Assembly: GCA_963680875.1 (NCBI GenBank)
Contig: OY804588.1
Coordinates: 56,432,369 to 56,496,368, forward strand
Direction: 5' to 3'
Length of the DNA stretch: 64,000 nt
Source: Bathymodiolus brooksi
Taxonomy: Eukaryota > Mollusca > Bivalvia > Mytilida > Modiolidae
Position numbers and translations under genes: made by a program
The notes under the pieces: generated by a model
What the model was told of the DNA's origin: nothing
What the model saw: only the letters and a program-made list of their open reading frames with translations
Database searches by the model: none
Shown: positions 1 to 51,725 of the stretch, in pieces
Layout of the letters: the number at the start of each line of letters is the position of its first letter
Position numbering within the stretch: position 1 is the first letter of the stretch

Positions 1-32
1 CAATGACGTAGGTCCCGGCCCCCGTATCCACT

Positions 33-130
33 TCACGTTTAACAGTTTCACCAATATTTCAGTCATATGCTGGCGATCAGTTGTATTGGTTGAGGCAAAC
101 CGAAGTATTCGGAGAAAATCACCGACTTAT
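33..130 (-). repeat. SINE-1 fragment (diverged)
   Basis: It shows the reversed SINE-1 core: ttcaccaatatttcagtcat, then a diverged 'attggttgaggcaaaccg' and 'ggagaaaatcaccgac'. The mirror copy is at 43105-43200. Confidence 0.6.
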
Positions 131-319
131 TGAAAGTCAATAAAAAACAAACTTATCACATGAAGTTGTATCGAGGTCGTTTCATCATGGGCGGGAATCG
201 AACTCACAACTAAACCCACTAATTAAGTAAGTAAATGCAATACGCATGCACATATTTTTTTAATATGTTGGAATGTACATTATATCCAAGATAATTAACC
301 AAGGTGGTGTTATTGCTAA

Positions 320-655
320 TGGGCTATGCTCCAGTGGTAACGATCGTGGGTTCTATTTCAGATCGAATAAAACCTCAAATATATTTGCTGCTTTTCCGGT
401 AAGCTTTTATCATTAAGGAATGAAAGCAAAGACTGGTCCGATGTTATCAGGATACAACACGTCTACTTGCGGGTTGGAACTGTTCTCCCGGTAAGCTAGT
501 ACTTTAAAAGCCCATCTCGGTGTGTTGATCTTCTACAATGCAGATATAATCACCTCGTCAAAAAGTAACTTGTACTCGCCAAGATGTAGCTGAGGTGTTG
601 CTGACTTGGAGCTAGACAACAATCAATCGCTCACTCGCTATCGCTCACAAAAATG
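320..655 (+). repeat. SINE-2, old diverged copy
   Basis: The order of blocks matches SINE-2: a tRNA-like head (ccagtggtaacgatcgtggg), cattaaggaatgaaagcaaa, gactggt, a gctagtac block and a tail ending in acaacaatcaatcgctcact. It lies upstream of the peptide gene and is preserved in B (about 42590-42945) and D (about 50380-50705), so it predates the duplication. Confidence 0.6.
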
Positions 656-723
656 ACGACTAACATTATTTGTTATATTTCTTTTACAGATACAAAGACA
701 AAGTTATACTACGACAAGAAAAA

Positions 724-1662
724 ATGAAATCAACACAAATAAAGTTGGCTTTCTTCATATTTACCTTCATTGCCATTGTAAGTATAACTTAAATATATTT
801 GTTTCGTCAGTGTAAGAGATTATGAGGTTTAACGCCACTTACAGCAATATTTAAGTTATATCAGTTTTATTGGTGGAGTACCCGGAGAAAACTACTAACC
901 TACAGCAAGTTACTGACAAACTTTATAGCATAATGTTGTATCGAGTTGTTTCACCAGAGACTATCTTTTGTCGTGACTTCTAGCTTCGAATATATAGACA
1001 ATATTGTACATTGTCGACAATTATAACATTTATTTAGAAACAGGACCAAAAGTGAGCCTCTGTACACAACAATGTATATATATTGTTATTCATGTTGCAA
1101 TGTCATGAAATATCAGAACAACATCGGTGGCGTAATGGTTAGCGTGATCGCCTCGAGTGTAGTAGGTCGTGGGGTTCGAACCCATGTCAGGTCAAAGCAA
1201 AGGCTATTAAATTGATATACATGTATGTTGCTTCTCCGCTGAACTTACAACATTAAGGAGCAAAAACAAAGACTTGTTGGCTCGAATTCTGATAATTTGA
1301 CCAGATGGGACGACATGTTTACCCGCGGACTGTTGTTTCAGTGATCTAGCACTATCAAAGCCAAAGTAAAGGTGTTGGTTTAGTACACAACACTCCATAA
1401 TTTCATCGAATATAAGTTGTTCTCTCCATGATATAGCTGAACAATTGCTCATTATCCTTGTTATATAAAATATTTTGTCTTTCAGCAATTGTGTTCAAAT
1501 AGTCCGCCATTAGCAGAAGGTCGACTTAAGTGGATCTGGAAGGGATTAAAAGCTGTTTTTAAACCAACGTGTGCTGGATGCGCAGGGATATGTGAACGTA
1601 AAGTTCCTGGAAAATGCCGATGTAGAGTTGATCAGGCGTGTATGAGAAATTGGGGACGTTAA
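724..1662 (+). CDS. Secreted cationic cysteine-rich peptide, copy A (candidate antimicrobial peptide)
   Basis: The model is two coding exons, 724-777 and 1486-1662, giving 76 residues. Exon 1 sits behind an acceptor (ttttacag, ending 689), starts ATG AAA TCA and ends at a GTAAGT donor. It encodes a typical signal peptide (MKSTQ start, then Phe/Ile-rich). Exon 2 follows tctttcag in phase 0. The mature region begins around NSPPLAEG, continues with a Lys/Trp-rich stretch (RLKWIWKGLKAVFKP) that can form an amphipathic helix, and then has six cysteines spaced C-x2-C-x3-C-x7-C-x-C-x5-C. I count about 12 Lys/Arg against 3 Asp/Glu. It ends NWGR-stop, a Gly-Arg amidation signal. It does not match the mussel defensins, mytilins, myticins or big defensins as I know them. 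The intron carries two SINEs. Secretion and cationic character are seen; antimicrobial function is inferred. Confidence 0.75.
820..955 (-). repeat. SINE-1 fragment in the peptide-gene intron
   Basis: It runs from gtttaacgccacttacagca through attggtggagtacccggaga to ttgtatcgagt on the plus strand, which is the SINE-1 body in reverse. It is shared with B and D. Confidence 0.75.
1120..1470 (+). repeat. SINE-2, full tRNA-like head and body, in the intron
   Basis: The head 'cggtggcgtaatggttagcg' plus 'ggttcgaaccc' gives A-box and B-box-like RNA polymerase III signals. The body has cattaaggagcaaaaacaaa, ggcucg-like 'ttggctcg' and gatatagctgaacaattgct. The same insertion is in B and D. Confidence 0.85.
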
Positions 1663-1713
1663 AAATGCCGATGTAGAGTTGATCAGGCGTGTATGAGAAA
1701 CAGAGGACGTTAA
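1663..1713 (+). repeat. 51-bp in-frame tandem duplicate of the peptide-gene 3' end
   Basis: The last 51 bases of the coding exon (Lys-Cys-Arg-Cys to the stop) are repeated immediately after the stop, in the same frame, with the final residues changed from Asn-Trp-Gly-Arg to Asn-Arg-Gly-Arg. Copy D has it; copy B has only one unit. It is untranslated unless the first stop is read through. Confidence 0.9.
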
Positions 1714-1767
1714 CCTAATACATTGTTTGTACATAGACTTTTATATGATTTTTTTTTATTTTTGTAG

Positions 1768-1773
1768 AATAAA
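1768..1773 (+). promoter_or_regulatory. Polyadenylation signal AATAAA of the copy A peptide gene
   Basis: AATAAA lies about 105 bases after the stop and is conserved in D (51831-51836) and B (41520-41525 on the minus strand). Confidence 0.7.
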
Positions 1774-2249
1774 ATGGTAAAGCTTATTATCATTTTTCTT
1801 ACATTTATTTAAAATATCCTCTTTGGATGAAAACAAACGAAGTGGGTTTTTTTTGTTTTTTTAAACAAATTGACAATTCCATTTCCCCCCGCAATGGAGA
1901 CAACTGCATAAGTCGTCTGCAAAGCTTCAACAATGGCCGTCTCGCCTGATCAATAGACAGTGGGGGAAACATTCAGAATCGCTAGGTAGAGTGGTATTAG
2001 CTATTAGATGAAAAAAACAAAATTTAGTATTAGCCTGCTATTTAAAAATAAATGTGGAAGTGAACGTCAGACTGGTAATGTGTGTTGTGGTTGATGTCAT
2101 AGCCTATAGGCATAGAAATGATGCGAAAAAATATGAGCTGCAGGCTCTAGGGGTGTTGTATTGTCCAGTAAATGGGTTGATTCACCAGTAAATGGGTTGA
2201 TTCATACAAGATATGTTTTGTTACTGTGGAAAAAAGTAATTAAAACAGC

Positions 2250-2377
2250 ATGGCCTTCATCTAAGGTAGATATTCAAATTTGTTAACCCTAGACAAGTTG
2301 TTTTCCACGAGAGCGCTCGGTTAGACAACCTCTCTTTGAGTTGACAAATCTGAATGTCTACCTCAGATGAAGGCCAT
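2250..2377. repeat. Foldback (inverted-repeat) element
   Basis: ATGGCCTTCATCT at the left and AGATGAAGGCCAT at the right open two arms of about 40 bp that pair imperfectly around a 45-bp loop. Copies lie at 40935-41062 and 52212-52339 at the same place in B and D. Confidence 0.8.
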
Positions 2378-2907
2378 AATTATTGTATATTGATTACATA
2401 TACCGATATTCAGACATACTCCGTTTTATAGATCTTGTTGTTTGTTCAATAATAACATGTCTATGGTCTATTCTATTCAATGATGTGTGTTTATTATATA
2501 TAATAAGTAAATAGTTCCGCTAAACCTTAATGAGAATAAGGGTAATAACAAAATTACCGAACTCCGAACAATCTTACAAAGGGAAAGTCAATACTCATAA
2601 TTATATAAACAGACAAAATCAGTCAACAACCGGAAAACTGTGAAAACCGTAATGACCCTGACTTGGTATAGGCATTTCTAAAGAAATGGTGGGTTGAATC
2701 AGATTTTAAAGCGCCAAACCTCCCGCTTTCATTACGGCTCAAAGTTTCCGGCTGAGAACGTTACAACTACCAAATCGATCTTTAAAAATGGCATTGAAAA
2801 TTTTGATGAATGAGAAATAAATCTTAAATCTTAAAAGTCGGGCACAACGATATATGTTTACGTATTAAATTGTAAATTCGCAGGTTCTTGAGCTGTAGGG
2901 TTAGGGT

Positions 2908-3035
2908 TATGGTGTTTAACGCCACTTTCAACAACAATTCAGTTACATCGTGGCGGCAAGTTTTATTGGTGGAGGAAACCGGAGTACTAGGAGAAAACCA
3001 CCGACCTGTCGCAAGTCACTGATAAGCTTGATCAC
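2908..3035 (-). repeat. SINE-1 fragment
   Basis: Reversed SINE-1: gtttaacgccactttcaaca, attggtggaggaaaccggag, accgacctgtcgcaagtcac. The 2.1-kb TIR element is inserted at its end. Confidence 0.85.
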
Positions 3036-3040
3036 ATAAA

Positions 3041-5140
3041 CACTGTCGTCAAAGAGCTCCGGTCGAAAATGTTCTGTCATCTTCCGGTACAAGTCAATTA
3101 GGCATATTTGACATACAGGGGACGACAAAAAGTAAGTATTATGATCACATAGTATTATTATATCTTGAATCCAGAAGATGTCGTTATCGGTCGATTATTT
3201 TTGTTTGTTTTTACCTATATGTTTCTGTGGTTAACTTAATAGATTACTCAGATATAGATAAAATGATGGACATAAACAATGAAAAATGCTAATAATGAGA
3301 TTGGAATCATCAAATAAAGCTATAAAAAGTAGTCTATATGTGTAATTAAAGTACACAAACCGTTTGTAATGCTTATATACGTGATAGTTTGCACTGGCGT
3401 GCCACCATGAATAGTTTTAGACTTACTACAGTGAAAAACACAATGCTTATTTACGTACATTCGTTCGGGCTCTGTCAGCCACTACTTTCCGGTTAAGTCC
3501 CAAAAATTGTGTTTCAGTAGAACCGGTTTTGTCTATGTAAAAAATTGAAAGAATAGCGAAAACAGCTCAATATCACAATTATGTTTCCTTTTTGTAATTT
3601 ATTTAAGGTTCATTATAACACTTGTCAATGGTATGTTCGACTTGCAAATTGATAAAAAGAAAAAAAAGAAACTTGTCTTAAATGAATAAAAGTTGTGGAA
3701 AAAAAACCCAGCACATAGTCAAAATATTTTACATGTGGATGTTTTGTATAACATTAAAGGAAAGAAATACAAAACGACTCCTCAACGGCTTTCATCTGTA
3801 AAGTAAATTTAATATATAGCAGATACTAGTAAGTGAATGTTGAATGTAAAGATACACAAACATCTGTATGGAGTTCACAATATAATATAAATGTAGCAAT
3901 CAAATTATCTGAAGCTGATACAAACAAAATGAAGGTAATCGCAAGATTGAAACATAAGATGTTTTAATAGTATTTCTTCGCTGCCCACTTAATGTTTGTT
4001 TTATCCTTCACTTGTTCTATTCGAGTAGTCACATTGTATTGCCCGGATATTTTTAGTTATACATTTGTATTTGGTTTCTGACCAAGATATCTTTTCTGGG
4101 ACCTGATTCCTGTTGAGCGACGGTAAGAAACTGTAACAGCATGTATGCTTATAAGCTTAAACCTATAAGCGCGGACTTCACAGAGGACACAATCAAAAAT
4201 GATAAGAACAACACTTGTTTCTGCTCTTTTTAGACAATTTGACAGTTTCTTTGGGATTTATTTGTAATGTTAATGTAAACATTATACTGTGAAGAAATTT
4301 AGATATCGTATCCACGAAGTTATTTCCACAGAGTGACTTACTTCGTTATCAACGAGTATAAAATTAAAATATTGTGTTATAAAAAGAATCTCCCACTACT
4401 CAATTGATGCGACTTAAAGTGATGCCTGTGCCACAAAAAGCATAAAAAAATCAAGTGTTCGCGACAGCAGCAATTTAACATAGAAATAACGATTTTGTAT
4501 TGTACAAAGTAGCTGAAATTAGCAGCCATAGCGAATATTCATACTATGAATCAGTATTTATCGCTTTTGAGATATTTCCAAATCATAACTATTGTTAAAT
4601 TGCATTATAATGCTCAATAACAATAAGATCAGTGGTATTTACATACTGACAAACCCGGTTTCTTATAAATGACACAACCGGTTTATATACATGTTTACAT
4701 TTTGACCAAGCCGAATTTCAAAAACATGTGTTGAGATCATGTTTTAGGGTATAACTAGTTACTAATTGACTTTTCCTCAACAAAATAATATTTCTAAGTA
4801 AAATCAATCATTCATCAATATTTTTTTCTTTTTTGCTATCATTTAATTCATTCGCAAATGCAAGATATAGCGATATTTCAGTTGATTGTAATGATTTTGA
4901 TGCCGGATTCCTTATAACTTATAGAAAAATCTAATTTTACACTGCAAAAATAAATGATATTTGGACAAAAAATTAAATTAATAATAATAACAATCAGAGA
5001 GCATCACAATTCAAAATATTATATACACAGTATATTCATAAATACTTACGATAATTATCTGTGTCTTCTTTAAAAATACCGCTTTAAAATATCCCGGATG
5101 TTGACCAAACATTTTCGATCGGAGCTCTTTGACGACAGTG
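3041..5140. mobile_element. 2.1-kb non-coding TIR DNA transposon with ATAAA target duplication
   Basis: The ends are inverted repeats: CACTGTCGTCAAAGAGCTCC at the left, and GGAGCTCTTTGACGACAGTG at the right. It is flanked by ATAAA at 3036-3040 and 5141-5145. Copy D has the empty site with one ATAAA (52998-53002), which proves insertion. The interior is AT-rich with no long open reading frame, so it is non-autonomous. A 5-bp target duplication and a CACTGT start recall Transib/RAG-like transposons, but that assignment is tentative. Confidence 0.88.
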
Positions 5141-5179
5141 ATAAAGTAATAGCTTGCATTTAAATATATAGAGATTTTA

Positions 5180-5335
5180 CGTAGTAAGAGCAACAAGCTT
5201 CCTTGCTTGGAGTCGGGATAATGTGTCGAGTTGAGAGACATGTCAGTTTGTGGGCTTGTACTATGAAAATCCAACCAAGCGTGTTCAAGTTAGGTACATG
5301 ATCTTGCCATGATATAGCTGAAACATGGCTCACCT
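5180..5335 (+). repeat. SINE-2 fragment (diverged)
   Basis: It has SINE-2 body blocks (cgggataatgtgtcgagttg, acatgtcagt, aaaatccaac and gatatagctgaaacatggct). It is shared with B, C and D. Confidence 0.6.
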
Positions 5336-5337
5336 TC

Positions 5338-5585
5338 ACAGCATCTGAGTGCACCTACGTTTATTGTGGGGTTCATGTTTAACAATCTTTAATTTGCTAT
5401 GTAGTGTATTGTAGATCCCTACTTGTTCTTTTATCCATTTCATTTTGGCTATTGTATTATGAAAAGAATGTCTTAAACAGTGATGGTCATCAATTCTACC
5501 AATATCAACAAAACGAACAACCACCTCTCATCTATTGATTGCTCCTCTTCGATCTGCGACCCCTTGGAATCTTCAAACTTTGCTT
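5338..5585 (+). repeat. Diverged retroelement 3' tail
   Basis: Block order is catctgagtgcacc, tgtggggttcatg, tttgtagatc-like, tgttcttttatcc, ggctattgtatt, and ccccttggaatcttcaaact. This parallels the retroelement tails at 31790, 57240 and 62995. It is shared with B, C and D. Confidence 0.5.
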
Positions 5586-5639
5586 AGCGCTTACCAAAAT
5601 CCCCTCGCTCACTATAACTAGACATGTACTTATGTTCAT

Positions 5640-6005
5640 CATTGGTAATGTTGTGAGTTTGATTCTCGCCTGTAGGTAGCAAGGTGTACTCGATACAAGT
5701 TCATGTAAATTACAGTAATAAAGTGTGATAATTATTTGCGTCAGGTCGATGGTTTTCTCCATGGGTCTAAGTTTTAACAAAAACTTACCAATACGATAAA
5801 CACGTAACCATGGCCGTAGCGCAATGGAGGCAAATGAGGCAAATGCCTCACTTTTGAAACGGCAAGTGTAACCTTTTGAAAGCAAATACAATCTTTTTTT
5901 TCAAAATTTGTCTAAATTCACCTCCTTTGCCTCACTTTATTCAGACCCGTCCTACGGACGTGGTAACTGTAATATTGTTTAAAGTGGCGTCCAAGAGCAA
6001 TAATC
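5640..6005 (+). repeat. SINE-1, diverged, interrupted by a miniature transposon
   Basis: It begins gttgtgagtttgattctcgc, continues gtgtactcgata and aggtcgatggttttctccat, then is broken by the 5809-5962 insertion, and ends tgtaatattgtttaaagtgg-cgt. Confidence 0.6.
5809..5962. mobile_element. 154-bp MITE with GTAAC target duplication
   Basis: The element runs from CATGGCCGTAGCGCAATGG to CGTCCTACGGACGTG, with short inverted ends (CAyGkCCGTAG), and is flanked by GTAAC at 5804-5808 and 5963-5967. The same insertion is in B (37344-37498). C and D keep the empty site (cagttacgtg near 46970 in C). Confidence 0.85.
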
Positions 6006-6109
6006 CATATAATTATTTATTTTGTACACTCGAATGATTGCTAATAGGAAATTAAGTTTTCATAATAATTTGCAGCATTCTGTGTGTTTTCATGTATTTA
6101 TATATCCTG

Positions 6110-6375
6110 ATACTAAGGGGCCGTGATCAGGACCAGATTACCCTATGAGCTGCAGCCTAGGGCACCTCAAGGTGTAGGGATCCTGCTAAAACACTTTCAA
6201 ATCACTATTCTAGTTTATTTAAAGAAAGAATTTGCAATAAATTTACTTCAAGCTATGTCACGAGTAAAAAATATTCAAGACTGGTGCAGGTAGTTTATGG
6301 TGTAGCTCCGTCTGAGGGGAGGGGGGGTGGCACAATTGTGTTAGCCTCGAGGTCACAAAAGGTCATAACCCGGCC
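6110..6375. other. Duplicated non-coding stretch, no gene seen
   Basis: The segment from gggccgtgatcaggaccaga to cggccctggtcgtgttcgta is conserved in B, C and D. It contains a GA/GC-rich patch (ggggaggggggg). I see no convincing coding frame and no recognised element. Confidence 0.5.
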
Positions 6376-6377
6376 CT

Positions 6378-6603
6378 GGTCGTGTTCGTATGGTTGTTGG
6401 ATTTACAACAACCTGTACAATCAGTGCCTATCACCGCTAAAGTTGTGAGTTCAAATTCCGCTCATGGCGAAGTGTACTCGATACAACATTAAGTGATAAA
6501 GTTTGTAAGTGGTTTTCTCCGGGTACTCCGGTTTCCTCCACCAATAAAACTGATCGCCATGATGTAACTGAAATATTGTTGAAATCTGCGTTAAACACCA
6601 TAA
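6378..6603 (+). repeat. SINE-1, near full length
   Basis: The head is ggttgttggatttacaacaa and agttgtgagttcaaattccg; the body is gtgtactcgatacaacatta and ggtttcctccaccaataaaa; the tail is gttaaacaccataaccct. In C and D the same SINE has an internal deletion. Confidence 0.88.
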
Positions 6604-9220: not shown

Positions 9221-10182
9221 TTATTCCATTGGAATCCATCCAGGATAAAAATGGTCAGAATAATTTGAATATAATCTTGAAATTGGCGATCCCGGTTTAT
9301 CCGGGTATTTGTAATACACAGTTGTCCCCCTTGTCACCCATGATACCATCCATCCATATGTTCCAACAGTCATTAGTGTATGATTTGTCAGTGTTAGCAA
9401 TGCCATATCTAATATCCCAGAATTCCCTTCTACTATAAAAATGTCTTCTGATTTTGGCAAGATCTCTTTCGCCCATGAAATATCATTCGCACAAACTATG
9501 AAGAAACAATTCGTAAAGCGACTTCTATAATAGTCCATTCCTTCTATTAAATAACTTTTGGGAGCAAATTGTTTACCAAAAACATTTGTTTCGTATGATG
9601 AAAACTTTCTTATATGTACGCCAATGAATGTTTTCTTTATACCGGAAGTGACGTTTCTCGATAACACAATCTGGTGCAATTGTTGTTGGGCTTCATTTAA
9701 AATGTGCGGTTTTATTTGAAATATCTTTCTCAATTCTGATTCATATTTTTGCCAATACCTCCAAGATTGGAAATATCCATGAAATGATAAATCTCTATCG
9801 TCTGGTAAATTTTCAAATTTATAATCGTAACCACAATGGTATCGGTCGTCAATATATTTCCAGAAACACCAGCAACTGAATCTATTATAACCATATAAAC
9901 TCCATGTGTTTGGCCTTATGTTAAAATATCGAGTCAACATATTGCCTTCCGGTATTATTAACTGTAAGTTCTTTTCCCGCCCTTTACTGTATGCGAAAGC
10001 ATAGTGGAAAAACTGGTTCCCTATTCCACCGTGGAAGGACATGCATACCATTTTATTCCGTTGATGTCCATTTTGTAAAAGAGGTGTACATATAAATAAA
10101 TACGTGAAAATGTATAGCAGAATGAAAATACAAGCTAAGAGAAATAGAAACTTCAAAAATATCTTCAAAAGTAATAATTTTC
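9221..10182 (-). CDS. Alpha-1,2-fucosyltransferase-like protein (GT11), last exon
   Basis: This is a single long 3'-terminal exon of about 320 codons. GT11 enzymes transfer fucose from GDP-fucose to galactose in the Golgi. The protein reads as type II: a hydrophobic anchor in the first 27 residues, a short stem, then GGIGNQFFHYAF (the N-terminal GGLGNQ-type motif), a GVHIRKFSSY segment at the nucleotide-binding HxRR position, a CANDISWAKE segment, and DMALLTLTNHTLMTVGTYGW near the C-terminus. Possible N-glycosylation sites include NVTS, NHTL and NYSD. No ATG precedes the hydrophobic segment. Instead the frame opens at a strong acceptor (pyrimidine tract plus CAG, ending 10183), so the start codon must lie in an unseen upstream exon. 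Oddity: the usual HxRRxD reads His-Ile-Arg-Lys-Phe-Ser here. The family call is firm; activity is uncertain. Confidence 0.88.
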
Positions 10183-11400
10183 CTGAAAAAAGAAGAAGAA
10201 AATATTAGACTAAGTCGTAAATATTGGAATGCAATTATGTACATTTTTGGTCAAGGACATTTTCAAATCATGTTGTAAAGTTTGCATGTAATGTTTGCTT
10301 GATTGTTTGGTTGGTTGTTTGTTTGTTAATTTCACGTATTAAATGTTGGATTTGCTGACGATTCCTGGACAAATATTTAATGTATTTTGTTTTGTCTCTC
10401 GACTCTATGTTCGCATTGTTGCTTTTTCCTGATCGGCCATGCATCAATAAATCTCTAGTGATTGAGGTACTGCACGTTCATTATCATAAAAAATGGTTGT
10501 GATTACATGCCGGTCACTTCCTATAAAGGTATAATACAGACGTGCCGTTGGAAGGGGTTCGAAATATTTCAGCCTTCAAATACATGACTGGATCGTAAAT
10601 TCTACTTCAATATATGGATGCTGAATTTTGAGCTGCAATATATCAATGTATGGACTGAGGGCAATAATTTACCCCCCTCCCCCCCCCCCCTCCAACACAC
10701 ACACCTTTATTGGCTAAATTTAAGAAAAACTTAATAACTCCCATTATAGCTAAAATAAAACAGAGAAAACAATTGGTATAGATTATAAGAGTATAGATGC
10801 AAGAGCTAACTAATCTTATTTTTTTATTGCTTGTCAGATTTGAAACTAGCAACCCTCATTTCTCGGTCCACTCCAAAAACTTGCATCCCCCTTTCCACAA
10901 ACTTTTCGGTCCACACCGTCTCCTTTACAATGGGTCTTATGCGAGTTTTGGCATTTCACACACATGTGGAAAGCAAATGCATGACCGCATCATTTCACTA
11001 AGAGAAGAGGGTTGACCCATATACTAGTTTAAACCCGCCACTTTTTTCATTGAAGTGCTGGAACCAAGCCAGGAAAGTGAGCGGTCATGTATTTGTGTGT
11101 TTGTGGTATCAATTTTTTCTCTGTCTACGATTTTTACATTTGATTTTGGAATTGTTCCCAGTGGGTGATATATTTTTTTTTCATGTTATATATTAATGGA
11201 TTAACAACAACAACAACTGAAAAATATTAGAATGAGTCTCGTTTTCAAACAGCAAACATATAAATTAAGTGGGGTTTCATGCTGAATAAATATATACATC
11301 GGAATGTTTTTCAATCCCTATAGCTGCAACCTTGTACCTAATTCTACCTACAATGACCCTCTGTGTGGGATTATTAACGATTATTAACGATATTGATGAC
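10183..11400. other. Non-coding stretch upstream of the fucosyltransferase-like exon
   Basis: This should hold the 5' exon or exons and promoter of the minus-strand gene, but I cannot place them. It contains a poly-C/CA tract at about 10673-10705 and a loosely conserved repeat (10520-10660) resembling 17290-17480. Confidence 0.5.
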
Positions 11401-13165: not shown

Positions 13166-13368
13166 TTATTGTACTTACGATTTTTATATACATCATATAG
13201 TTTTCTGATATTTGTATGGATAATCCTCATATTTCCTATAAAAATAAAAATAAATGTGATAAAAAGTTCCATGGGAACCTAATTAGGAAATGAGTCGTCC
13301 GCGTATCCAAATGTTTTTAATTTAATTCATTATTTATTTAACGAGGATTACTAACAGCCAACGGCTAC

Positions 13369-14889
13369 CAGGGGCGGATCCAGGATTTCAAGTTAGGGGT
13401 GGCGTACTTAAAAAAATTGCGCCGAGCGGAGGGTATTTCGTGTGAGAATTCGCGATTTTACGCCAAAAAAGCAGATTACAGAATCTCTCTCCTACCCCTA
13501 ACCTCCAATTCTAAAAATAAAACCGTGATGAGCAAACTACATTGTATGTCAAATTTGTAGTTTAAGTTTCACTTCAATCCATTGAGTGGTTATTTAGGAG
13601 TTGCGGGTTGCAGAATCCTCCTCTTACCCCCTCCACCCGACCTTCAATGAAAATTCTAAAAAACATTGTGCACAACTACAATGTATTTCAAGTACATTAT
13701 ATAGTTTAAGTCAATCAATTGCGTGGTTACAGTCAGGGGAGTTGCGGATTGCAGAAATCTTACAGACGGACGGACGAACGGACGGAGATCAAGTGTTTGA
13801 GCAACGGGCGTAAAAACCTCATTACACTAAAAGGTCAAACAACAAAAATGTATCAAAGTTCTCGAGAAATATGCTTACGGAAATCAGGTGTGAGATGTGC
13901 ATAAACCATTTTGTCGAGATTATTTTCACACTTTCATGTGCAGTTGTAGATATTAATTTATTACAAATAAATTGTAGTCAGAATGTTTTGTTAAAAATGT
14001 GTAAAAAAATTGTCCAGACATCCATTGGTAGATATAAATAATATAAACGTATACGGACAAAGGATTTGTACACACTTTCTTGTGCAGATACCTCGGGCAG
14101 ATGCAGAGATTGTTACAAATAAATTGCCGCTATTTTTTTTATTTTTTTTTATTAATATGTTACTTTTGTATTTTAATGTACAATATACCAACGCGTAATT
14201 TTACTGATCTTTACTTGAAAAGTAAAAGGCAACATTTTCGGGTATTTATATACAAATCAAATTTATATTTTTTTTCATATGAAATTGCAGAATTTCGAAT
14301 TCAAGACCTATTTGAACCATTATTTAAAGAGAAGTGACCATTTTCTTGGGACACTCAAGTTTCTACACACTATCTCAGTTTCATCATCTGATTCTCTCGT
14401 TATAGGTTTTCGTTGTATGTTTTATAAATGAGATCAATTGTTAAATTAATTATTCGAAGTATTGATTGAATTTACTTTTTAGTTTACCGTTGACTTTTCT
14501 CCTCTCGTCGAGGAATAAGAAATGTATCCAATCTTGCTTGTTTTCTTGGCCTAGAATTTTCGTCCATTTTATAATTTCTAAATAGCACGTGTACATGTAG
14601 TTGTAAAATTGACTGCAGAAATAATGTTTAGTTAGCGTGAGAAAATAGTTGATGTCTGGTACCTCGGAACCAATCAGAATGGAATAATCTTTGAACTACT
14701 GACGGCGAATACATATATGAATCAGCGAACACATCCAACGTGTATTTACAATGTGTAAGAATATTTTACAACAGGTCACGAGTTAACCATTCATGAAAAA
14801 GTTATTTATTGAACTGCTTAATTAACGTTGTATAACATATGCTTTGCGAATTTTAGGGGGGGCGCACGCCCCCTCTAAATCCGCCACTG
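13369..14889 (+). mobile_element. CAGGGGCGGATCC-family TIR element, 1521 bp, GCTAC target duplication
   Basis: The left end is CAGGGGCGGATCCAGGATTT, the right end is AAATCCGCCACTG, and it is flanked by GCTAC at 13364-13368 and 14890-14894. The body has no transposase frame and is shared with 33934-35457 and 43261-45229, so this is a non-autonomous family. Confidence 0.88.
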
Positions 14890-15120
14890 GCTACAAGTAG
14901 CTCTCCTAAACATATACAGATTATACACAATAATGATAAATATGATGAAATAACATTAGACGAACGACAATATATACAGAATAAGGCACACAAACATACA
15001 CATTTTTATACAGATGCTCTCACTGACACACACGCACTCAAAAACAGACATGTCAGGAAGTGTGTAAGGTTGTGATGAAAGTGATATGATAATGAGACAA
15101 TAGTTTCTTCCTATTATACA

Positions 15121-15727: not shown

Positions 15728-16085
15728 TAAACCACATCGGTAGTGTAACGGTCAGCGTGTTCGCCTCGAGTGTAGTAGGTCGTGGATTATAGCCCTTGTC
15801 GAGTCAAACCAAAGACGATGAAATTGGTATTTGTTGCTTCTCCGCTAGGTACGCAGCATTAAGGAGTATGAACAAAGATTAGTTGGTTCGGAATCAGGAT
15901 AATGTGTCTACAGTGGAGCAACATGTCTACCCCCAGATTATTTTTTCAGCGACCTAGTACTATAAAGATTCAATTGTGCGTGTTGGCTTAGTACAAAGCG
16001 GACATTATTATCATCATTTCATCATGTTGTTCTCGCTATGATATTCACTGAAAAAATTGCTGAATTGGCGTTAAACAACAATCAC
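15728..16085 (+). repeat. SINE-2, full length
   Basis: Head 'cggtagtgtaacggtcagcg' and 'gcctcgagtgtagtaggtcg'; body cagcattaaggagtatgaac and ggttcggaatcaggataatg; tail aattggcgttaaacaacaat. Confidence 0.92.
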
Positions 16086-17702: not shown

Positions 17703-18070
17703 AGAGTGAGTGAGTGAGTGAGTGTTGTTTAACGCCAACTCAGCAATTTTTCAGTTATATCATGGCGAGAACAAGTTAATTATCAATGAGATGATGATGC
17801 GGTCCGCTTTATTCTAGACCAACAGGCTGAGTTGGATTGTTATAGTGCTAGCTCAATGAAACAACAGTCCGCGGATAGACATGTCGCCCCACTCGGACAC
17901 ATTATTCTGATTCCGAGCCAACCAATCTTTGCTCTTACTCCTTAATGCTGCGTGCTTAGCGGAGAAGCAACAAATGCCAATTTTATAGTCTTTGGTTTAA
18001 ACCGACGGGGCTCGAACCCACGATCTACCGCACTCGAGGCGAGCATGCTAACCATTACACCACCGATGCT
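17703..18070 (-). repeat. SINE-2, full length, reversed, with (GAGT)n
   Basis: (gtga)n, then ttgtttaacgccaactcagc, ttatatcatggcgagaacaa, ggctcgaacccacgatctac and accattacaccaccgatgc. Confidence 0.92.
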
Positions 18071-18375
18071 GTTATATATTTATATATTATCCTGCAATCA
18101 GTACATTTGCTGTACAAATATGCTATACGAATACATTTTTGCTTTATTCGTACTAGACGCATAAACTTTTCAGCCTACGAATAAACTTTCCTGGTACTCT
18201 GTAGCTATGTACAGCGGAGGGCGCAGACAAGTATGAAACTGGTACTAATGTAACGCGGACTACGAAGAAGACACCCTTGACAACATTTATGAAAGGCGAG
18301 GAATGACGCTTGTTTCTGTCCTTTTTGCTTAAATCTGACAAGTTTTCCGACTTTTTTGACATTGCAGGATAAACA

Positions 18376-26052: not shown

Positions 26053-27822
26053 CTTGGATGTACAAAAAATAATTTCAAATGTCCAATTTGTCGAAGAATT
26101 GTGACACTGGGAGACTTAGAGAACAACATTGGCAAAAAGTTTACCACTAAATAATTTGATCGTCTTCGTGGTTGACAAGCAAGCAATGACAACATCTGAA
26201 AAACTCTGCGATCCCTGCCAATTTAATACAGAAAGCGTGAAAGCAATATCTTGGTGTTCAACATGTGAGGAGGGTTTGTGTAAGTCATGTGACAAATATC
26301 ATCGCTCGTTCAAAATTACTTTAAGCCACGTTATTGTACCGTTAGAAGAAATGAATTCTGATAAAATTTCCTTAGGTATCCGTGGGATCAATTATTGTAG
26401 TGAACATAACGGTAAAATAATCGAAGTGTACTGCGTGGATCATTCGAGACCCTGTTGTGCTCTATGCGGAACATTTTCACACCGAAAGTGTGAAAATGTA
26501 ATATCCATCGATACTACGGCTGCTGGGATAAAGCAATCAACGAAAGCGTGGACCTGTCCAATGAATTGCAACAAAAAAGTAAGCATATCGATGAAATGAT
26601 TGAAAACCGAAAAGAAAATATAGGTGTGATAGAAAAAAAAACTGGTGACATTTTAGCGAACATTGATGAAGTCAAGGATGCTGTTATAAAACATCTAAAT
26701 GAAGTCGCCGACAAAATGAAGGAAAAAGTTACTTCTTCAAAGAAAAATACTGTCATAACTTTATCTGATGAGGTCACAGAATTATCCAGTATTAAATGTA
26801 CCGTTGACAACTGGAAGGTTATTCTGGACACTTGTGTTCAACATGGCTCAGAGCAGCAATGTTTGGTTGAAATGGACAGAATAACCCGAAAGAACTTTGA
26901 TCTAGATAAGGAGATGAAAGAAGCGATTTTGCAACCGAGAAATCCGTTAGTGACCTTTGAAACCAATAAGTTTCTATGTGAATTTCAAGCAAATGTTGAA
27001 TCTTTCGGCGATTTAACACTCGATTCATATCTGAACACAAACGGAATTTTGGGGAAAGTGAATTTTGTATCCGGAAGTATAAAAATCCTCAAAACCATCG
27101 AAATTGATATAAATAAAGCTGGAACGAGACGAATAAATGGAATATTTGTCCTAAATGTCCTGATTTTGACCGATTCAATCAACAGACAAGTTATCAAGTA
27201 CAACGAGAATTATGTCTATATGTCAAGCCTGTCATTGCCAAAACAGGTGGCCGACATTACCAGCATGGGACAAGACGTAGTGGCGGTGGCGTCGTTAAGT
27301 TCTGATGATATTTACCTCATAAATATTAAGACAATGACTTTAACAAAGACAATAAAAGTATCCACCACTTTACATGGCTTACAGTACGTGGAGGGCGAAT
27401 TTATTGCTGTAAACAACGGTACGTTAACATGGTTATCTGCCGAGGGACTACAACTTAGAGAAAGCAAAAACCATACAAATCCTTGGTTTGTTCGTTCTCT
27501 TGATAAAAAAAGCCACATATGTGGAGACGGTATACATGCTATTTCCCACACCAAAGATGAAAGGAAACAATTTACATACTCCAGTCCGACGTTGAGCAAC
27601 CCTAGGGGAATTGATGTTGATGTGGAAGGAAACGTTTATATTGTAGGATACGGTTCTAATAATATCCATCAGATAACAAGCGAAGGAAAACATATCAGAA
27701 CGATTTCTACGACAAACTTTGGAATTTCGTCACCTTGGGCTTTACGTTTTAAACCAAAAAGTGCTGTTTTCCTTTTGACTTCTTATGAGACTGGAAAAGC
27801 TGTGATTTGTAAAATTGACTGA
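26053..27822 (+). pseudogene. TRIM-type protein (RING end, two B-boxes, coiled coil, NHL-like C-terminus) with two frameshifts
   Basis: Homology passes through three frames. 26053-26130 gives the end of a RING finger (GCTKNNFKCPICRR). A shifted frame from about 26129 (first ATG 26186) gives two B-boxes: CDPC, CSTC, CKSC then H; and CSEH, CVDH, CCALC, H. From about 26523 the first frame resumes (DKAINESVDLSNE) with a long coiled coil, then a beta-propeller-like region ending with a typical NHL phrase (NPRGIDVDVEGNVYIVGYGS) and TGA. TRIM proteins are ubiquitin E3 ligases, often expanded in bivalve immunity. One extra base near 26130 and one missing base near 26523 are needed; an in-frame TAA (26050) lies just before the RING piece, and its first half is missing. 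It is either a pseudogene or an assembly with two indel errors. Confidence 0.8.
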
Positions 27823-30587: not shown

Positions 30588-31062
30588 GCATCGATGGTGT
30601 AATGGTCATCATATTTGCCTCGAGTGCGGTAGATCGTAGGTTCGAGCCGAGGTCGGGTCAAACCAAAGACTATAAAATTGATATTTTGCTTTTTCCGCTA
30701 AACACGCAACATTAAGGAGAAAGATCAAATACTAGTTGGCTCGGAATCAGACTAATGTGTCCGAGTGGAGCGACATGTCTACCCACGGACTGTTGTTTCA
30801 GTGAGCTAGCAGTATAAAAATCCAACTCAGCATGTTGGTCTAGTACAAAATGGATCTCATCATCATCTCATTGAATATTGTTCCCGGCATGACATAGCTG
30901 AAAAAATTGCTGAATTGACGTTAAACAACACTCACGCACGCACTCACGCACGCCCGCCCGCCCGCCCGCCCACCCGCATTCCCTCCCTCCCTCACTCACT
31001 CACTCACTCACTCACTCACTCACTCACTCACTCACTCACTCACTCACTCACTCAATCAATCA
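30588..31062 (+). repeat. SINE-2, full length, with (CGCC)n and (CTCA)n tail
   Basis: Head 'gatggtgtaatggtcatcat' and 'gtaggttcgagcc'; body ggctcggaatcagactaatg and gtgagctagcagtataaaaa; tail aattgacgttaaacaacact followed by a (GCCC)n run (about 30947-30972) and (CTCA)n to about 31054. It is the longest simple tail of the family here. Confidence 0.93.
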
Positions 31063-33905: not shown

Positions 33906-33933
33906 ATATATTGTTTCCAAAAGCAGTACAGAC

Positions 33934-35457
33934 CAGGGGCGGATCCAGGATTTCAAGTTAGGGGAGGCGCACTTTTTTTTTGGAGGGGAGGGGTATTTCA
34001 TGTGAAAATTCACGATTTTACGCCAAAAAAGCAGATTACAGAATCTCCCTCCTACCCCTATCCCCCAATTCTAAAAATAAAACCGTGGTGAGCAAACTAC
34101 AGTGTATTTCAATTTGTAGTTTAAGTTTCACTTCAATCCATTGAGTGGTTATTTAGGAGTTGCGGGTTGCAGAATCATCCTCCTACCCCCTCCACCCCGC
34201 CTTCAATGAAAAATCTAAAAACCATTGTGCACAACTACAATGTATTTCAAGTACATTATATAGCTTAACGTCAATCAATTGCGTGGTTACAGTCAGGGGA
34301 GTTGCAGATTGCAGACATCTTACAGAGGGACAGACGGATGGACGGACGGACATCAAGTGTTTGAGCAACGGGCGTAAATACCTCATTGCACTAAAAGATC
34401 AAACAAAAAAAATGTATCAAAGTTCTCGAGAAATATGTTTACGGAAATCAGGTGTGAGATATGCATAAACCATTTTGTCGAGATTATTTTCACACTTTCA
34501 TGTGCAGTTGTAGATATTAATTTATTACAAATAAATTGTAGTCACATTTTTTTTGTTAAAAATGTGTAAACGAATTGTACATCCATTCATTGGTAGATAT
34601 AAATAATATAAACGTACCCGGACAACGGATTTGTTCACACTTTCTTCTGCAGATACCTCGGGCAGATGCAGAGATTGTTACAAATTAATTGCCGCTAATT
34701 TTTTTTTTTATTAATATGTTACTTTTGTATTTTAATGTACAATATACCAACGCGTATTTTTACTGATCTTTACTTGAAAAGTAAAAGGCAACATTTTCGG
34801 GTATTTGTATACAAATCAAACTTATATTTTTTTTTTCATATGAAATTGCAGAATTTCGAATTCAAGAACTATTTGAACCATTATTTAAAGAGAAGTGACC
34901 ATTTTCTTGGGACACTCAAGTTTCTACACACTGTCTCAGTTTCATCATCTGATTCTCTCGTTATATGTTTTCGTTGTATGTTTTATAAATGAGATCAATT
35001 GTTAAATTAATTATTCGAAGTATTGATTGAATTTACTTTGTAGTTTACCTTTGACTTTTCTCGTCTCGTCGAGGAATCAGAAATGTATCCAATCTTGCTT
35101 GTTTTCTTGGCCTAGAATTTTCGGCCATTTTATAATTTCTAAATAGCACGTGTACATGTAATTGTAAAATTGACTGCAGAAATAATGTTTAATTAGCGTG
35201 AGAAAATAGTTGATGTCTGGTACCTCGGAACCAATCAGAATTGAATAATCTTTGAACTACTGACGGCGAATACATATATGAATCAGCGAACACATCCAAC
35301 GTGTATTTACAATGTGTAAGAATATTTTACTACAGGTCACGAGTTAACCATTCATGAAAAGTTATTTATTGAACTGCTTAATTAACTTTGTATAACATAT
35401 GCTATGCGAATTTTAGGGGGCGCACGCCCCGCACGCCCCCCTCTAAATCCGCCACTG
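33934..35457 (+). mobile_element. CAGGGGCGGATCC-family element, 1524 bp, mismatched flanks
   Basis: Left end CAGGGGCGGATCCAGGATTT and right end AAATCCGCCACTG, with a body nearly identical to 13369-14889. Its flanks are CAGAC and GCATA, so there is no target duplication. The right edge coincides with the start of duplicated segment B. Confidence 0.88.
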
Positions 35458-35782
35458 GCATATAATGCAAGGGAAGTAACACCAGTCCCCCTATAGCTAC
35501 CTTACGGCTATATATAGCTACATGGGATAACCCCAAATAATACATTTCTATGACGTTATTACAAATCAGACGGACCATAGGTGAACATTCGTTTTATTTT
35601 TGTTAATTGTTGTCTTATTTGGCTTTCTAAACATTAAAAGTGTAAACTTATAAAATGAAAACATTTTTGCAGATGGAAATGTATTATGTAAGAGAATATT
35701 TTAAGAATCTAAGGTTGGAGTGTATTCTCCATTGCGTAAAGGCGGGGATAGTGTGAAAATTTATCATGCGATTGGGTCTATA

Positions 35783-36236
35783 GGAGAATACCACTAAAGA
35801 ATTCTCCATAGACTTCTATGTTAAATAAAAAAATAATTAAGGTTTCATACAGGATTCATCTTAAGTTTAATCTAAGTGACACTCATATCTCATGGAAGGG
35901 GTACCTAATTGGAAGCTTAACTCCGAAAATTAACATGTATTTAATAGCATATAAGAAAAAACAGACAGTCCGAAGATGTCTACCGTCAAAAATCCTACTT
36001 TCACTTTCGATTTAACACAAATTCAGGTGGTTTCTTTCCAATGCAATCAATTTTCTATTTAAAACCACAAGGACATCAAATATGGGATTAATATTATCCT
36101 GAAATATGTAGGTTTCTGCTGACATTCAGTATTTTGCAGTATCTAATTAGGTTTATATTTTATCCAACAATGTAGGAATCCATTTTGTGTTTACGTACTA
36201 CTTTCGACTGTTACCCATGTTTAGTGGCAATACACC
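35783..36236. mobile_element. 454-bp MITE private to copy B, TA/TATA target duplication
   Basis: The ends ggagaataccactaaa and tttagtggcaatacacc form imperfect inverted repeats. TATA flanks both sides (35779-35782, 36237-36240), and C and D keep the uninterrupted 'gggtctataatgg'. No coding frame is convincing. Confidence 0.82.
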
Positions 36237-36715
36237 TATAACGGAACCGATCAGCTCAGATGTAATTTATTGGTGCTATATTTGTATAATTTTAAAATAT
36301 TGAAACTATATTAAAGGATTGGCCAAAAAGCATACTTACGTGTACAGTCATAGGAAACAAATACTTAGTAATTTAATCTTGTTATGCATTTTTTTTTATT
36401 CCCATCTCGACTCTTCCACTCCCCTTTTTTTTACAGTTTAAAATAGAAAGTGTCTAAAACATATATTTTGAAACATTTTGATACCAGACAGAAATGCTAT
36501 TTTACTGTCAATTATTTATCTCATAAATTTAATACGTAATGTTTTTATATGGATGTAAATACACAGAGTTCCGGATCGGAAAGTGTATTTCTGTCATTGC
36601 AAAAATACATTCCTACTGGAATTTAAAATCTATAATCTATATTGTTGAAACTTGTAATCGTCTTTCGATGTTACTAATATTTCATTACATCGGGAACATA
36701 TAAGGTTATTACGTT

Positions 36716-36935
36716 AATGGTGTTTAACGCCACTTTCAACAATATTTCAGTTATATCGTGGCAGTCAGTTTTATTGGTGGAGAAAACCGGAGAAAACCAC
36801 CGATATGTCGTAACTTTATTACATAATGTTGTATCGAGTACACATCGCCTGGGTGTGATTCGAACTCACAACTTTAGCGGTGATAGGCACTGATTGTACA
36901 GGTAGTTGTAAGTCCAACAACCATACGAACACGAC
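36716..36935 (-). repeat. SINE-1, near full length, reversed
   Basis: It is the mirror of 6378-6603: ggtgtttaacgccactttca to ggtagttgtaagtccaacaa. Confidence 0.88.
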
Positions 36936-37343
36936 CAGGGCCGGGTCATGAGCTTTTGTGACCTCGAGGCTAACGCAATTGTTCCACCCCCCCTCCCCTC
37001 AGACGAAGCTACACCATAAACCACCTGCACCAGTCTTGAATATTTTTTACTCGTGACATAGCTTGAAGTAAATTTATTGCAAATTCTTTCTTTAAATAAA
37101 CTAGAATAGTGATTTGAAAGTATTTTAGCAGGATCTTGAGGTGCCCTAGGCTGCAGTCTATAGGGTAATCTGGTCCAGATCACGGCCCCTCAGTATCATG
37201 ATATATAAATACATGAAAACATACAGAATGCTGCAAATTATTATGAAAACTTAATTTCCTATCAGCAATCATTCGAGTGTACAAAATAAATAATTATATG
37301 GAGTATTGCTCTTGGACGCCACTTTCAACAATATTACAGTTAC

Positions 37344-37498
37344 CACGGCCGTAGGACGGGTCTGAATAAAGTGAGGCAAAGGAGGTGAATTTAGACAAAT
37401 TTTGAAAAAAAAAGATTTTATTTGCTTTCAAAAGGTTACACTTGCCGTTTCAAAAGTGAGGCATTTGCCTCATTTGCCTCCATTGCGCTACGGCCATG
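37344..37498. mobile_element. 155-bp MITE, copy B, GTTAC target duplication
   Basis: It is the mirror of 5809-5962, flanked by GTTAC at 37339-37343 and 37499-37503. Its better-preserved left end (cacggccgtaggacgg) shows the inverted ends clearly. Confidence 0.85.
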
Positions 37499-38167
37499 GT
37501 TACGTGTTTATCGTATTGGTAAGTTTTTGTTAAAACTTAGACCCATGGAGAAAACCATCGACCTGACGCAAATAATGATCACACTTTATTACTGTAATTT
37601 ACATGAACTTGTATCGAGTACACCTTGCTACCTACAGGTGAGAATCAAACTCACAACATTACCAATGATGAGCATAATTACATGTCTAGTTATCGTGAGC
37701 GAGGGGATTTTTGGTAAGCGCTAAGCAAAGTTTGAAGATTCCAAGGGGTCGCAGATCGAAGAGGAGCAATCAATAGATGAGAGGTGGTTGTTCGTTTTGT
37801 TGATATTGGTAGAATTGATGACCATCACTGTTTAAGACATTCTTTTCATAATACAATAGCCAAAATAAAATGGATAAAAGAACAAGTAGTGATATACAAT
37901 ACACTACATAGCAAATTAAAGATTGTTAAACATGAACCCCACAATAAACGTAGGTGCACTCAGATGCTGTGAAGGTGAGCCATGTTTCAGCTATGTCATG
38001 GCAAGATCATGTACCTAACTTGAACACGCTTGGTTGGATTTTCATAGTACAATCCCACAAACTGACATGTCTCTCAACTCGACACATTATCCCGACTCCA
38101 AGCAAGGAAGCTTGTTGCTCTTACTACGTAAAATCTCTATATATTTAAATGCAAGCTATTACTTTAT

Positions 38168-40272: not shown

Positions 40273-40281
40273 TTTATGTGA

Positions 40282-40934: not shown

Positions 40935-41062
40935 ATGGCCTTCATCTGAGGTAGACATTCAGATTTGTCAACTCAAAGAGAGGTTGTCTAACCGAGCGCT
41001 CTCGTGGAAAACAACTTGTCTAGGGTTAACAAATTTGTATATCTACCTTAGATGAAGGCCAT
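40935..41062. repeat. Foldback element, copy B
   Basis: Mirror of 2250-2377, with the same arms (atggccttcatctgaggtag; ctaccttagatgaaggccat). Confidence 0.8.
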
Positions 41063-41789
41063 GCTGTTTTAATTACTTTTTTCCACAGTAACAAAACATA
41101 TCTTGTATGAATCAACCCATTTACTGGACAATACAACACCCCTAGAGCCTGCAGCTCATATTTTTTCGCATCATTTCTATGCCTATAGGCTATGACATCA
41201 ACCACAACACACATTACCAGTCTGACGTTCACTTCCACATTTATTTTTAAATAGCAGGCTAATACTATAACTTTGTTTTTTTCATCTAATATCTAATACC
41301 ACTCTACCTAGCGATTCTGAATGCTTCCCCCACTGTCTATTTAGCAGGCGAGACGGCCATTGTTGAAGCTTTGCAGACGACTTATGCAGTTGTCTCCCTT
41401 GCGGGGGGAAATGGAATTGTCAATTTGTTTAAAAAAACAAAAAAAACCCACTTCGTTTGTTTTCATCCAAAGAGGATATTTTAAATAAATGTAAGAAAAA
41501 TGATAATAAGCTTTACCATTTTATTCTACAAAAATAAAAAAAAAATCATATAAAAGTCTATGTACAAACAATGTATTAGGTTAACGTCCTCTATTTCTCA
41601 TACACGCCTGATCAACTCTACATCGGCATTTTCCAGGAACTTTACGTTCACATATCCCTGCGCATCCAGCACACGTTGGTTTAAAAGCAGCTTTTACTCC
41701 TTTCCAGATTCACTTAAGTCGACCTTCTGCTAATGGCGGACTATTTGAACACAATTGCTGAAAGACAAAATATTTTATATAACAAGGAT

Positions 41790-42425: not shown

Positions 42426-42589
42426 CTAACACTGACGAAACAAATATATTTAAGTTATACTTACAATGGCAATGAAGGTAAATATGAAGAAAGCCAACTT
42501 TATTTGTGTTGATTTCATTTTTTCTTGTCGTAGTATAACTTTGTCTTTGTATCTGCAAAAGAAATATAACAAATAATGTTAGTCGTCAT

Positions 42590-50787: not shown

Positions 50788-51725
50788 ATGAAATCAACAC
50801 AAATAAAGTTGGCTTTCTTCATATTTACCTTCATTGCCAATGTAAGTATAACTTAAATATATTTGTTTCGTCAGTGTTAGGGATTATGATGTTTAACGCC
50901 ACTTTCAGCAATATTTAAGTTATATCAGTTTTATTGGTGGAGTACCCGGAGAAAACCACTAACCTACAGCAAGTTACTGACAAACTTTATAACATAATGT
51001 TGTATCGAGTTGTTTCACCAGAGACTATCTTTTGTCGTGACTTCTAGCTCGAATATATAGACAATATTGTACATTGTCGACAATTATAACATTTATTTAG
51101 AAACAGGACCAAAAGTTAGCATCTGTACACAACAATGTATATATATTGTTATTCATGTTGCAATGTCATGAAATATCAGAACAACATCGGTGGCGTAGTG
51201 GTTAGCGTGATCGCCTCGAGTGTAGTAGGTCGTGGGGTTCGAACCCATGTCGGGTCAAAGCAAAGGCTATGAAATTGATATACATGTATGTTGCTTCTCC
51301 GCTGAACTTACAACATTAAGGAGCAAAAACAAAGACTTGTTGGCTCGAATTCTGATAATTTGACCAGATGGGACGACATGTTTACCCGCGGACTGTTGTT
51401 TCAGTGAGCTAGCACTATCAAAGCCAAAGTAAAGGTGTTGGTCTAGTACACAACACTCCATAATTTCATCGAATGTAAGTTGTTCTCTCCATGATATAGC
51501 TGAACAATTGCTCATTATCCTTGTTATTTATAATATTTTGTCTTTCAGCAATTGTGTTCAAATAGTCCGCCATTAGCAGAAGGTCGACTTAAGTGGATCT
51601 GGAAGGGAATAAAGACTGTTTTTAAACCAACGTGTGCCGGATGCGCAGGGATATGTGAACGTAAAGTTCCTGGAAAATGCCGATGTAAAGTTGATCAGGC
51701 GTGTATGAGAAATTGGGGACGTTAA
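50788..51725 (+). CDS. Secreted cationic cysteine-rich peptide, copy D (candidate antimicrobial peptide)
   Basis: Coding exons 50788-50841 and 51549-51725 give 76 residues behind the acceptor ttttgcag (50746-50753). Compared with copy A it has Asn instead of Ile at residue 18 (end of exon 1, in the signal-peptide region), Leu-Lys-Ala to Ile-Lys-Thr in the helix, and Arg to Lys after the Cys-x-Cys. The cysteine spacing C-x2-C-x3-C-x7-C-x-C-x5-C and the NWGR end are unchanged. All changes are conservative apart from the signal-peptide Asn, which suggests retained function. The intron holds the same two SINEs as A. A TATA/leader candidate lies upstream at 49750-49848. Confidence 0.75.
50880..51510. 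repeat. SINE-1 (-) and SINE-2 (+) in the copy D intron
   Basis: 50880-51010 mirrors 820-955. 51175-51510 is the SINE-2 with head 'cggtggcgtagtggttagcg' and 'ggttcgaacccatg'. Confidence 0.85.

What the first reader, a model, noticed from the sequence alone, without database searches (positions are those of the whole stretch)
724..1662. A new-looking secreted peptide: cationic helix joined to a six-cysteine module with an amidation end
Two spliced exons give a signal peptide, a Lys/Trp-rich amphipathic stretch (RLKWIWKGLKAVFKP), a six-cysteine block C-x2-C-x3-C-x7-C-x-C-x5-C and an NWGR-stop terminus. Known mussel peptides I can recall have different spacings. A membrane-active helix fused to a disulfide core and a possible C-terminal Trp-amide is an unusual design. 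Architecture is seen; antimicrobial role is inference.
Basis: partly seen in the sequence, partly recalled or inferred. Interest (0 to 1): 0.9.

Follow-up and report, generated by a model that had tools for sequence, protein, structure and literature searches.

The report
Two-part cysteine-core peptide of mussels
This stretch holds a small two-exon gene for a secreted peptide, a positively charged helix joined to a six-cysteine core, with relatives in mussels and in a hydrozoan jellyfish and no name in the catalogues searched; it looks like a defence peptide, but no activity has been tested.

Summary
Exons 724-777 and 1486-1662 give a 76-residue precursor with good splice sites. The window holds three copies in segmental duplications: two open, one with a stop in the helix. 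A 96%-identical protein lies on contigs of at most 523 bases although the gene spans 939, which implies a spliced transcript (inference). The family has an invariant P-x-C-x-G-C-A-G-[I/L]-C-E core. It includes Mytilus galloprovincialis hypothetical proteins and, further off, proteins recorded from Clytia (Cnidaria) and Seison (Rotifera). Pfam, PDB sequence search, Foldseek and text searches of open papers gave no name for it. An amidation-type end (Gly plus 0-3 Lys/Arg) occurs in 12 of 15 members against about 4 expected; the Trp before it is not kept. Among the three copies the helix varies most. Best reading: a host-defence peptide with a membrane-active helix and a disulfide core. Activity, disulfides, amidation and tissue are untested. 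The two-part design has precedents (scorpine/beta-KTx, big defensins); the core appears undescribed.

The parts
678..689 (+). acceptor-like TTTCTTTTACAG, possible end of a 5' UTR intron
   Evidence: sequence; inference, no transcript seen
724..777 (+). coding exon 1, copy A: MKSTQIKLAFFIFTFIAI, signal-peptide core
   Evidence: hydrophobic stretch; no signal-peptide predictor was available
778..1485 (+). phase-0 intron, GTAAGT...TTTTGTCTTTCAG, holding a tRNA-like SINE-type repeat at about 1108-1449
1486..1662 (+). coding exon 2, copy A: end of leader, helix, six-Cys core, tail, stop
   Evidence: in P0014 and P0005 the homologous part starts at the same Gln behind unrelated sequence
1522..1566 (+). 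cationic amphipathic helix R31-P45 (RLKWIWKGLKAVFKP)
   Evidence: 13 residues: hydrophobic moment 0.70, shuffle p 0.003; helix in AF2 models, (pLDDT about 60)
1570..1641 (+). six-cysteine core C47-C70
1651..1662 (+). W-G-R-stop, amidation-type terminus
1611..1713 (+). 51-bp tandem duplication of the last 17 codons including the stop; second unit (ending NRGR) lies behind the stop
1768..1773 (+). AATAAA polyadenylation signal
42465..42518 (-). copy B exon 1
41581..41757 (-). copy B exon 2, TGA at codon 34, ends NRGR, no 51-bp duplication: probably a pseudogene
50788..50841 (+). copy C exon 1 (I18N)
51549..51725 (+). copy C exon 2, open (helix ...KGIKTVFKP, CRCK, NWGR)

Best explanation
A small secreted host-defence peptide. 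Shown by sequence: a two-exon gene coding for a signal-peptide-like leader, a cationic helix, a six-cysteine core and a Gly-Arg end. Inferred: the leader is removed, a short stretch up to ...LAEG is trimmed, three disulfides lock the core, Arg76 and Gly75 are removed by carboxypeptidase and PAM to leave an amidated C-terminus, and the +4 Trp-rich helix binds and disturbs microbial membranes while the cationic core and tail (+5) stabilise the peptide or aim it at a target that has kept the core nearly fixed. Variation in the helix and repeated duplication of the gene fit an arms race.
For: Spliced gene and three copies; spliced transcripts implied by P0001 (longest contig 523) and P0002 (582). 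Hydrophobic moment of the 13 residues before the core above composition shuffles at p<0.02 in 8 of 15 members: the window, P0001-P0005, P0014 (mussel-type by sequence) and Seison P0006. Charge +3 to +5 in that stretch in 13 of 15. Terminal G[KR]0-3 in 12 of 15 against 3.95 expected from shuffled tails. Acidic pro-regions (-7 to -14) before the cationic part in P0007, P0008, P0011, P0012, P0015, the layout reported for arminin-type antimicrobial precursors (passages of PMC11452194). Helix codons vary at 6 of 48 sites among the three copies against 18 of 706 intron sites (p 0.003) and 3 of 171 other coding sites (p 0.004). Segmental duplications, in keeping with the gene presence/absence variation reported for mussel defence peptides (abstract; passages).
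Against: No activity, expression or mass-spectrometry data. In CRP-I, a mussel family of similar small cysteine-rich peptides, the one synthetic member tested led its authors to call antimicrobial action unlikely (abstract of PMC10138031). Hydrophobic moment is not above shuffles in 7 of 15 rows (P0007-P0012, P0015; p 0.09 to 0.99), which include both Clytia proteins. P0009 and P0010 are acidic and lack leader and amidation end; P0002 lacks the amidation end. The core is unusually well kept for an AMP (my judgement). The variability test was made after the differences had been seen, copy B is probably a pseudogene and supplies some of the changes, and nonsynonymous and synonymous counts are too few to show selection. 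AF2 confidence in the helix is low (about 60).
Confidence: 0.6

Rival explanations
1. A secreted signalling peptide or cytokine-like factor: the conserved core binds a conserved receptor, the helix and amidated end tune affinity.
For: Core 19 of 24 identical between the window peptide and Clytia P0008; amidation-type ends are usual in bioactive peptides.
Against: Strong positive charge, amphipathic and variable helix, multicopy gene with a broken copy: atypical of hormones.
Confidence: 0.17
2. An ion-channel blocker or protease inhibitor with a membrane-anchoring helix, as in two-domain arachnid peptides.
For: Two-domain precedents exist in scorpions and spiders (passages); a weak Bowman-Birk PDB hit for the core alone (E 0.91), no better than chance.
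Against: No significant Pfam, PDB-sequence or Foldseek match to a known inhibitor or channel-blocker fold.
Confidence: 0.13
3. A decaying gene cluster: the three copies are relics of duplication and only paralogues elsewhere are functional.
For: Copy B has a stop at codon 34; copy C has I18N in the leader; copies A and C carry a tail duplication.
Against: Copies A and C are open with intact splice sites; the near-identical P0001 is on transcript-sized contigs.
Confidence: 0.1

Closest known systems
Scorpine / beta-KTx (betaSPN) family
   Same: N-terminal helical domain plus C-terminal cysteine domain in one secreted peptide (passages of PMC5863496).
   Different: Theirs is a CS-alpha-beta domain; here AF2 places no helix at C-x3-C and no sequence match was found.
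Big defensins
   Same: Found in bivalves; N-terminal domain plus a C-terminal cysteine domain (passages of PMC7203481).
   Different: No Pfam match; intron here is phase 0 (18 codons before it), against the phase I intron described there.
Mussel CRP-I peptides
   Same: Short six-Cys mussel peptides in duplicated clusters; amidation assumed by the authors.
   Different: Array C(X3-6)C(X1-7)CC(X3-4)C(X3-5)C with a CC pair, absent here; no BLASTP alignment to sCRP-I H1.
Mytilins
   Same: Cationic mussel Cys-rich peptide with C-x3-C and C-x-C pairs.
   Different: Eight Cys, C-X3-C-X3-C-X4-C-X11-C-X-C-X-C-X2-C; no BLASTP alignment to Mcal mytilin 1.
Arminin-type precursors (Hydra, placozoans)
   Same: Clytia P0008 and P0015 and unnamed P0007, P0011, P0012 share the acidic pro-region, cationic end and C-terminal Gly layout.
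   Different: Arminins lack this cysteine core (recalled); mussel-type members lack the acidic pro-region.

Membership tests
CS-alpha-beta superfamily | C-x3-C paired with C-x-C (CSH motif) | tested here: inconclusive
   Spacing C50-x3-C54 and C62-x-C64 fits; role of these cysteines in the CSH motif read; pairing untested
CS-alpha-beta superfamily | alpha helix carrying C-x3-C followed by two strands | tested here: inconclusive
   AF2 gives no helix at C-x3-C, but two short strands then a C-terminal helix (core pLDDT about 82, pTM 0.32 and 0.37)
CS-alpha-beta superfamily | sequence or fold match to a known member | tested here: not met
   no such Pfam match (15, 27, 113), no PDB match for the peptide or profile at E<=10 (16, 50), no Foldseek match at E<=0.001 (83, 118)
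CRP-I | C(X3-6)C(X1-7)CC(X3-4)C(X3-5)C | tested here: not met
   no adjacent cysteines; array read
Mytilin | eight-cysteine array | tested here: not met
   six cysteines in the core; array read
Big defensin | beta-defensin-like domain / Pfam match | tested here: not met
   0 Pfam families at E<=10
Big defensin | phase I intron | tested here: not met
   54-nt coding exon 1, phase 0; feature read in a passage
Antimicrobial peptide (functional class) | kills or inhibits microbes | not testable with these tools
   charge and amphipathicity only
C-terminally amidated peptides | Gly followed by 0-3 basic residues at the C-terminus | tested here: met
   NWGR; 12 of 15 family rows; the modification itself is unseen

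The most novel reading that the evidence does not exclude
An unnamed animal peptide family, older than the split of cnidarians and bilaterians (or moved between marine animals), built from a near-invariant 24-residue six-cysteine core of a fold not yet solved, a fast-changing cationic helix and an amidated end. The core would act on a target met by all these hosts and the helix would be the diversifying weapon.
Probability: 0.35. Interest if true: 0.78.

Novelty: new variant of a known kind. Interest (0 to 1): 0.6.

Why it matters
A 24-residue core 19 of 24 identical between the window peptide and a hydrozoan protein is rare among small secreted cysteine-rich peptides (my judgement), so the family could show which part of a defence peptide is free to change and which is not. 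It also contradicts the database label 'Cnidarian restricted protein' on both Clytia members. A 2025 paper states that no bivalve AMP with an amphipathic alpha-helical structure had been described (PMC12294457, passage); this is a candidate, though the same paper predicts helical forms for some myticalins and a 2020 figure legend already lists an 'alpha helical mature peptide' among mussel AMP schemes (PMC7653742). The peptide is short enough to synthesise and test.

Tried and rejected
Chance ORF: rejected. CRP-I, mytilin, big defensin: rejected by array, Pfam or intron phase. CS-alpha-beta: spacing suggestive, not supported by AF2 or by sequence. Prokaryotic or viral origin: genome contigs had 7 pattern stretches and viral contigs 16, none confirmed as a relative; only P0009 was compared with plasmids, without match. 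The organisms of P0001, P0002, P0005, P0007 and P0009-P0012 are not named in the output; Seison P0006 lies on a 5,369-base contig, so contamination cannot be excluded. Weak Pfam hits below cut-off in relatives (P0008 RRN9 E 0.035; three for P0011, E 0.022-0.091; P0012 DUF5805 E 0.12) lie before the core and I read them as chance. Paper text searches for pieces of the core and for the spacing string found no description: 0 papers, and 9 that by title are unrelated and were not opened. Subscription journals, figures and supplements are not covered. PHROGs, NCBIfam and PADLOC were not searched. Codon counts (nonsynonymous/synonymous changes A-C 4/2, A-B 5/1, B-C 7/4, the stop included) are too few to read as selection. 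P0013 (E 3.9) has no core and was left out of the 15-row counts. P0014 differs from P0003 by one residue over the shared exon, so rows are not independent. P0009 and P0010 were found but not returned, although they were rows of its query.

Papers. PMC10138031: abstract, introduction, conclusions and passages. PMC7168163: abstract and passages. Passages only: PMC12294457, PMC5116183, PMC7653742, PMC7203481, PMC11452194, PMC5863496, PMC6832493. Others only in search listings.

Full report
WHAT IS THERE. Bases 724-777 and 1486-1662 on the + strand join in frame through a phase-0 intron (778-1485) with donor GTAAGT and acceptor TTTTGTCTTTCAG. They give MKSTQIKLAFFIFTFIAI|QLCSNSPPLAEG RLKWIWKGLKAVFKP T CAGCAGICERKVPGKCRCRVDQAC MRNWGR-stop, 76 residues. 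An acceptor-like site at 678-689 suggests an extra 5' UTR exon, and AATAAA lies at 1768. The cysteine spacing appears three times in the six-frame translation of the window, as many times as the gene has copies, and in 0 of 40 Markov windows.

COPIES. The window is folded with segmental duplications: 1-6601 returns inverted at 43241-36717 (96.8%), and arms 45632-47647 and 52998-55007 (97.4%) flank the third copy. Copy A (724-1662) and copy C (50788-51725) are open. Copy B (42518-41581, - strand) has TGA at codon 34 and is probably a pseudogene. A and C carry a 51-bp tandem duplication that repeats the last 17 codons and the stop. Copy B lacks it and ends NRGR, as does the untranslated second unit in A and C. 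The Trp before Gly-Arg is therefore a feature of some copies, while the Gly-Arg end is shared by all three.

FAMILY. A single-sequence search of 5.8 billion proteins gave 5 relatives: P0001 (96%), P0002 (84%), P0003 and P0004 (hypothetical proteins of Mytilus galloprovincialis, 65% and 63%) and P0005 (65% over 75% of the query). The longest contig of P0001 is 523 bases and that of P0002 582, both shorter than the 939-base gene with its 708-base intron, so these are most simply spliced transcripts; species and reads were not shown. A profile of these rows then reached P0006 (recorded as Seison nebaliae, E 1.9e-16), P0008 (recorded as Clytia hemisphaerica, E 6.8e-11) and unnamed P0007 and P0009-P0012; P0013 (E 3.9) has no core. 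A wider profile added P0014 (a M. galloprovincialis model in which an exon-2 sequence one residue different from P0003's follows other sequence) and P0015 (a second Clytia protein, E 2.3e-10), but did not return P0009 and P0010. The search needs shared 5-residue words, so more distant relatives may exist. In all 15 aligned rows the proline two before the first Cys, the six cysteines, and G, A, G, E of C-x-G-C-A-G-[IL]-C-E are invariant. The 24-residue core of the window peptide shares 21 residues with P0003, 18 with P0006 and 19 with Clytia P0008. This is homology, not only similar spacing. Both Clytia proteins bear the label 'Cnidarian restricted protein', which these mussel relatives contradict.

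ANATOMY ACROSS THE FAMILY. Of 15 rows with the core, 12 end in Gly followed by 0-3 Lys/Arg, against 3.95 expected when each tail is shuffled; exceptions are P0002, P0009 and P0010, and rows are not fully independent. Thirteen of 15 have a +3 to +5 stretch before the core; P0009 and P0010 do not. The hydrophobic moment of the 13 residues before the core exceeds composition shuffles at p<0.02 in 8 of 15 (window, P0001-P0006, P0014) and not in the other 7 (P0007-P0012, P0015). So the amphipathic helix is supported in the mussel-type rows and in Seison, and unsupported by this measure in Clytia and in the unnamed distant rows. Five members (P0007, P0008, P0011, P0012, P0015) carry an acidic pro-region of charge -7 to -14, like arminin-type precursors (passages).

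EVOLUTION. Among the three copies, helix codons 31-46 vary at 6 of 48 sites, the intron at 18 of 706 (p 0.003) and the rest of the coding sequence up to codon 73 at 3 of 171 (p 0.004). Nonsynonymous/synonymous counts (A-C 4/2, A-B 5/1, B-C 7/4) are too few to show selection. In the alignment of the window with P0001-P0005 the stretch before the core has one invariant column (P45), while most of the core columns are invariant.

READING. The most likely role is defence: a secreted, multi-copy, cationic, amphipathic, amidation-ready peptide with a variable helix and a rigid core. Against it: no activity data, and the CRP-I precedent, where authors judged antimicrobial action unlikely after testing one synthetic peptide. 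The design resembles scorpine/beta-KTx and big defensins (passages) without membership in either; CRP-I and mytilin membership fails on the array. A 2025 myticalin paper says no amphipathic-helical bivalve AMP had been described, though it predicts helical myticalins itself and a 2020 legend lists an alpha-helical mature peptide among mussel AMP schemes. Searches of the held open-access papers for pieces of the core and for its spacing found no description. Subscription papers, figures and supplements are not covered, so a prior description cannot be excluded.

LIMITS. The window's own genome could not be searched (14 unanswered calls), so total copy number is unknown. Species of the window is not shown by any search; the nearest named relatives are M. 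galloprovincialis proteins.

Noticed in passing
window 1108-1449: tRNA-like, SINE-type repeat inside the peptide gene's intron; about 72-75% similar copies at 17742-18081 (-; Rfam tRNA hit at 18004-18063), 30589-30911 and 15730-16061.
   Followed up: partly
window 1-6601, 13367-14891, 33932-43241, 45632-55007: Nested direct and inverted segmental duplications of about 93-98% identity, with a palindrome around copy C.
   Followed up: partly
window 9221-10204 (-): Open frame matching glycosyl transferase family 11 (PF01531, E 3.7e-27).
   Followed up: no
window 26120-27822 (+): Two overlapping open frames in different frames, B-box zinc finger then a beta-propeller-like end: a TRIM-like gene with an intron or a break where the frames meet.
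   Followed up: no
window 37-211, 827-946, 2897-3039 and elsewhere: Dispersed repeat (contains TTTTATTGGTGGAG) with many copies of about 67-90% identity across the window.
   Followed up: no
P0009, P0010: 46-residue proteins with the same core but acidic ends, no leader and no amidation signal, on contigs of 3.4 and 533 kb of unnamed source; no relative confirmed in prokaryote genomes. Possibly single exons.
   Followed up: partly
P0008, P0015: Two Clytia relatives labelled 'Cnidarian restricted protein' carry long acidic pro-regions before the cationic core peptide; P0015 also has an Arg-rich repeat stretch before it.
   Followed up: partly
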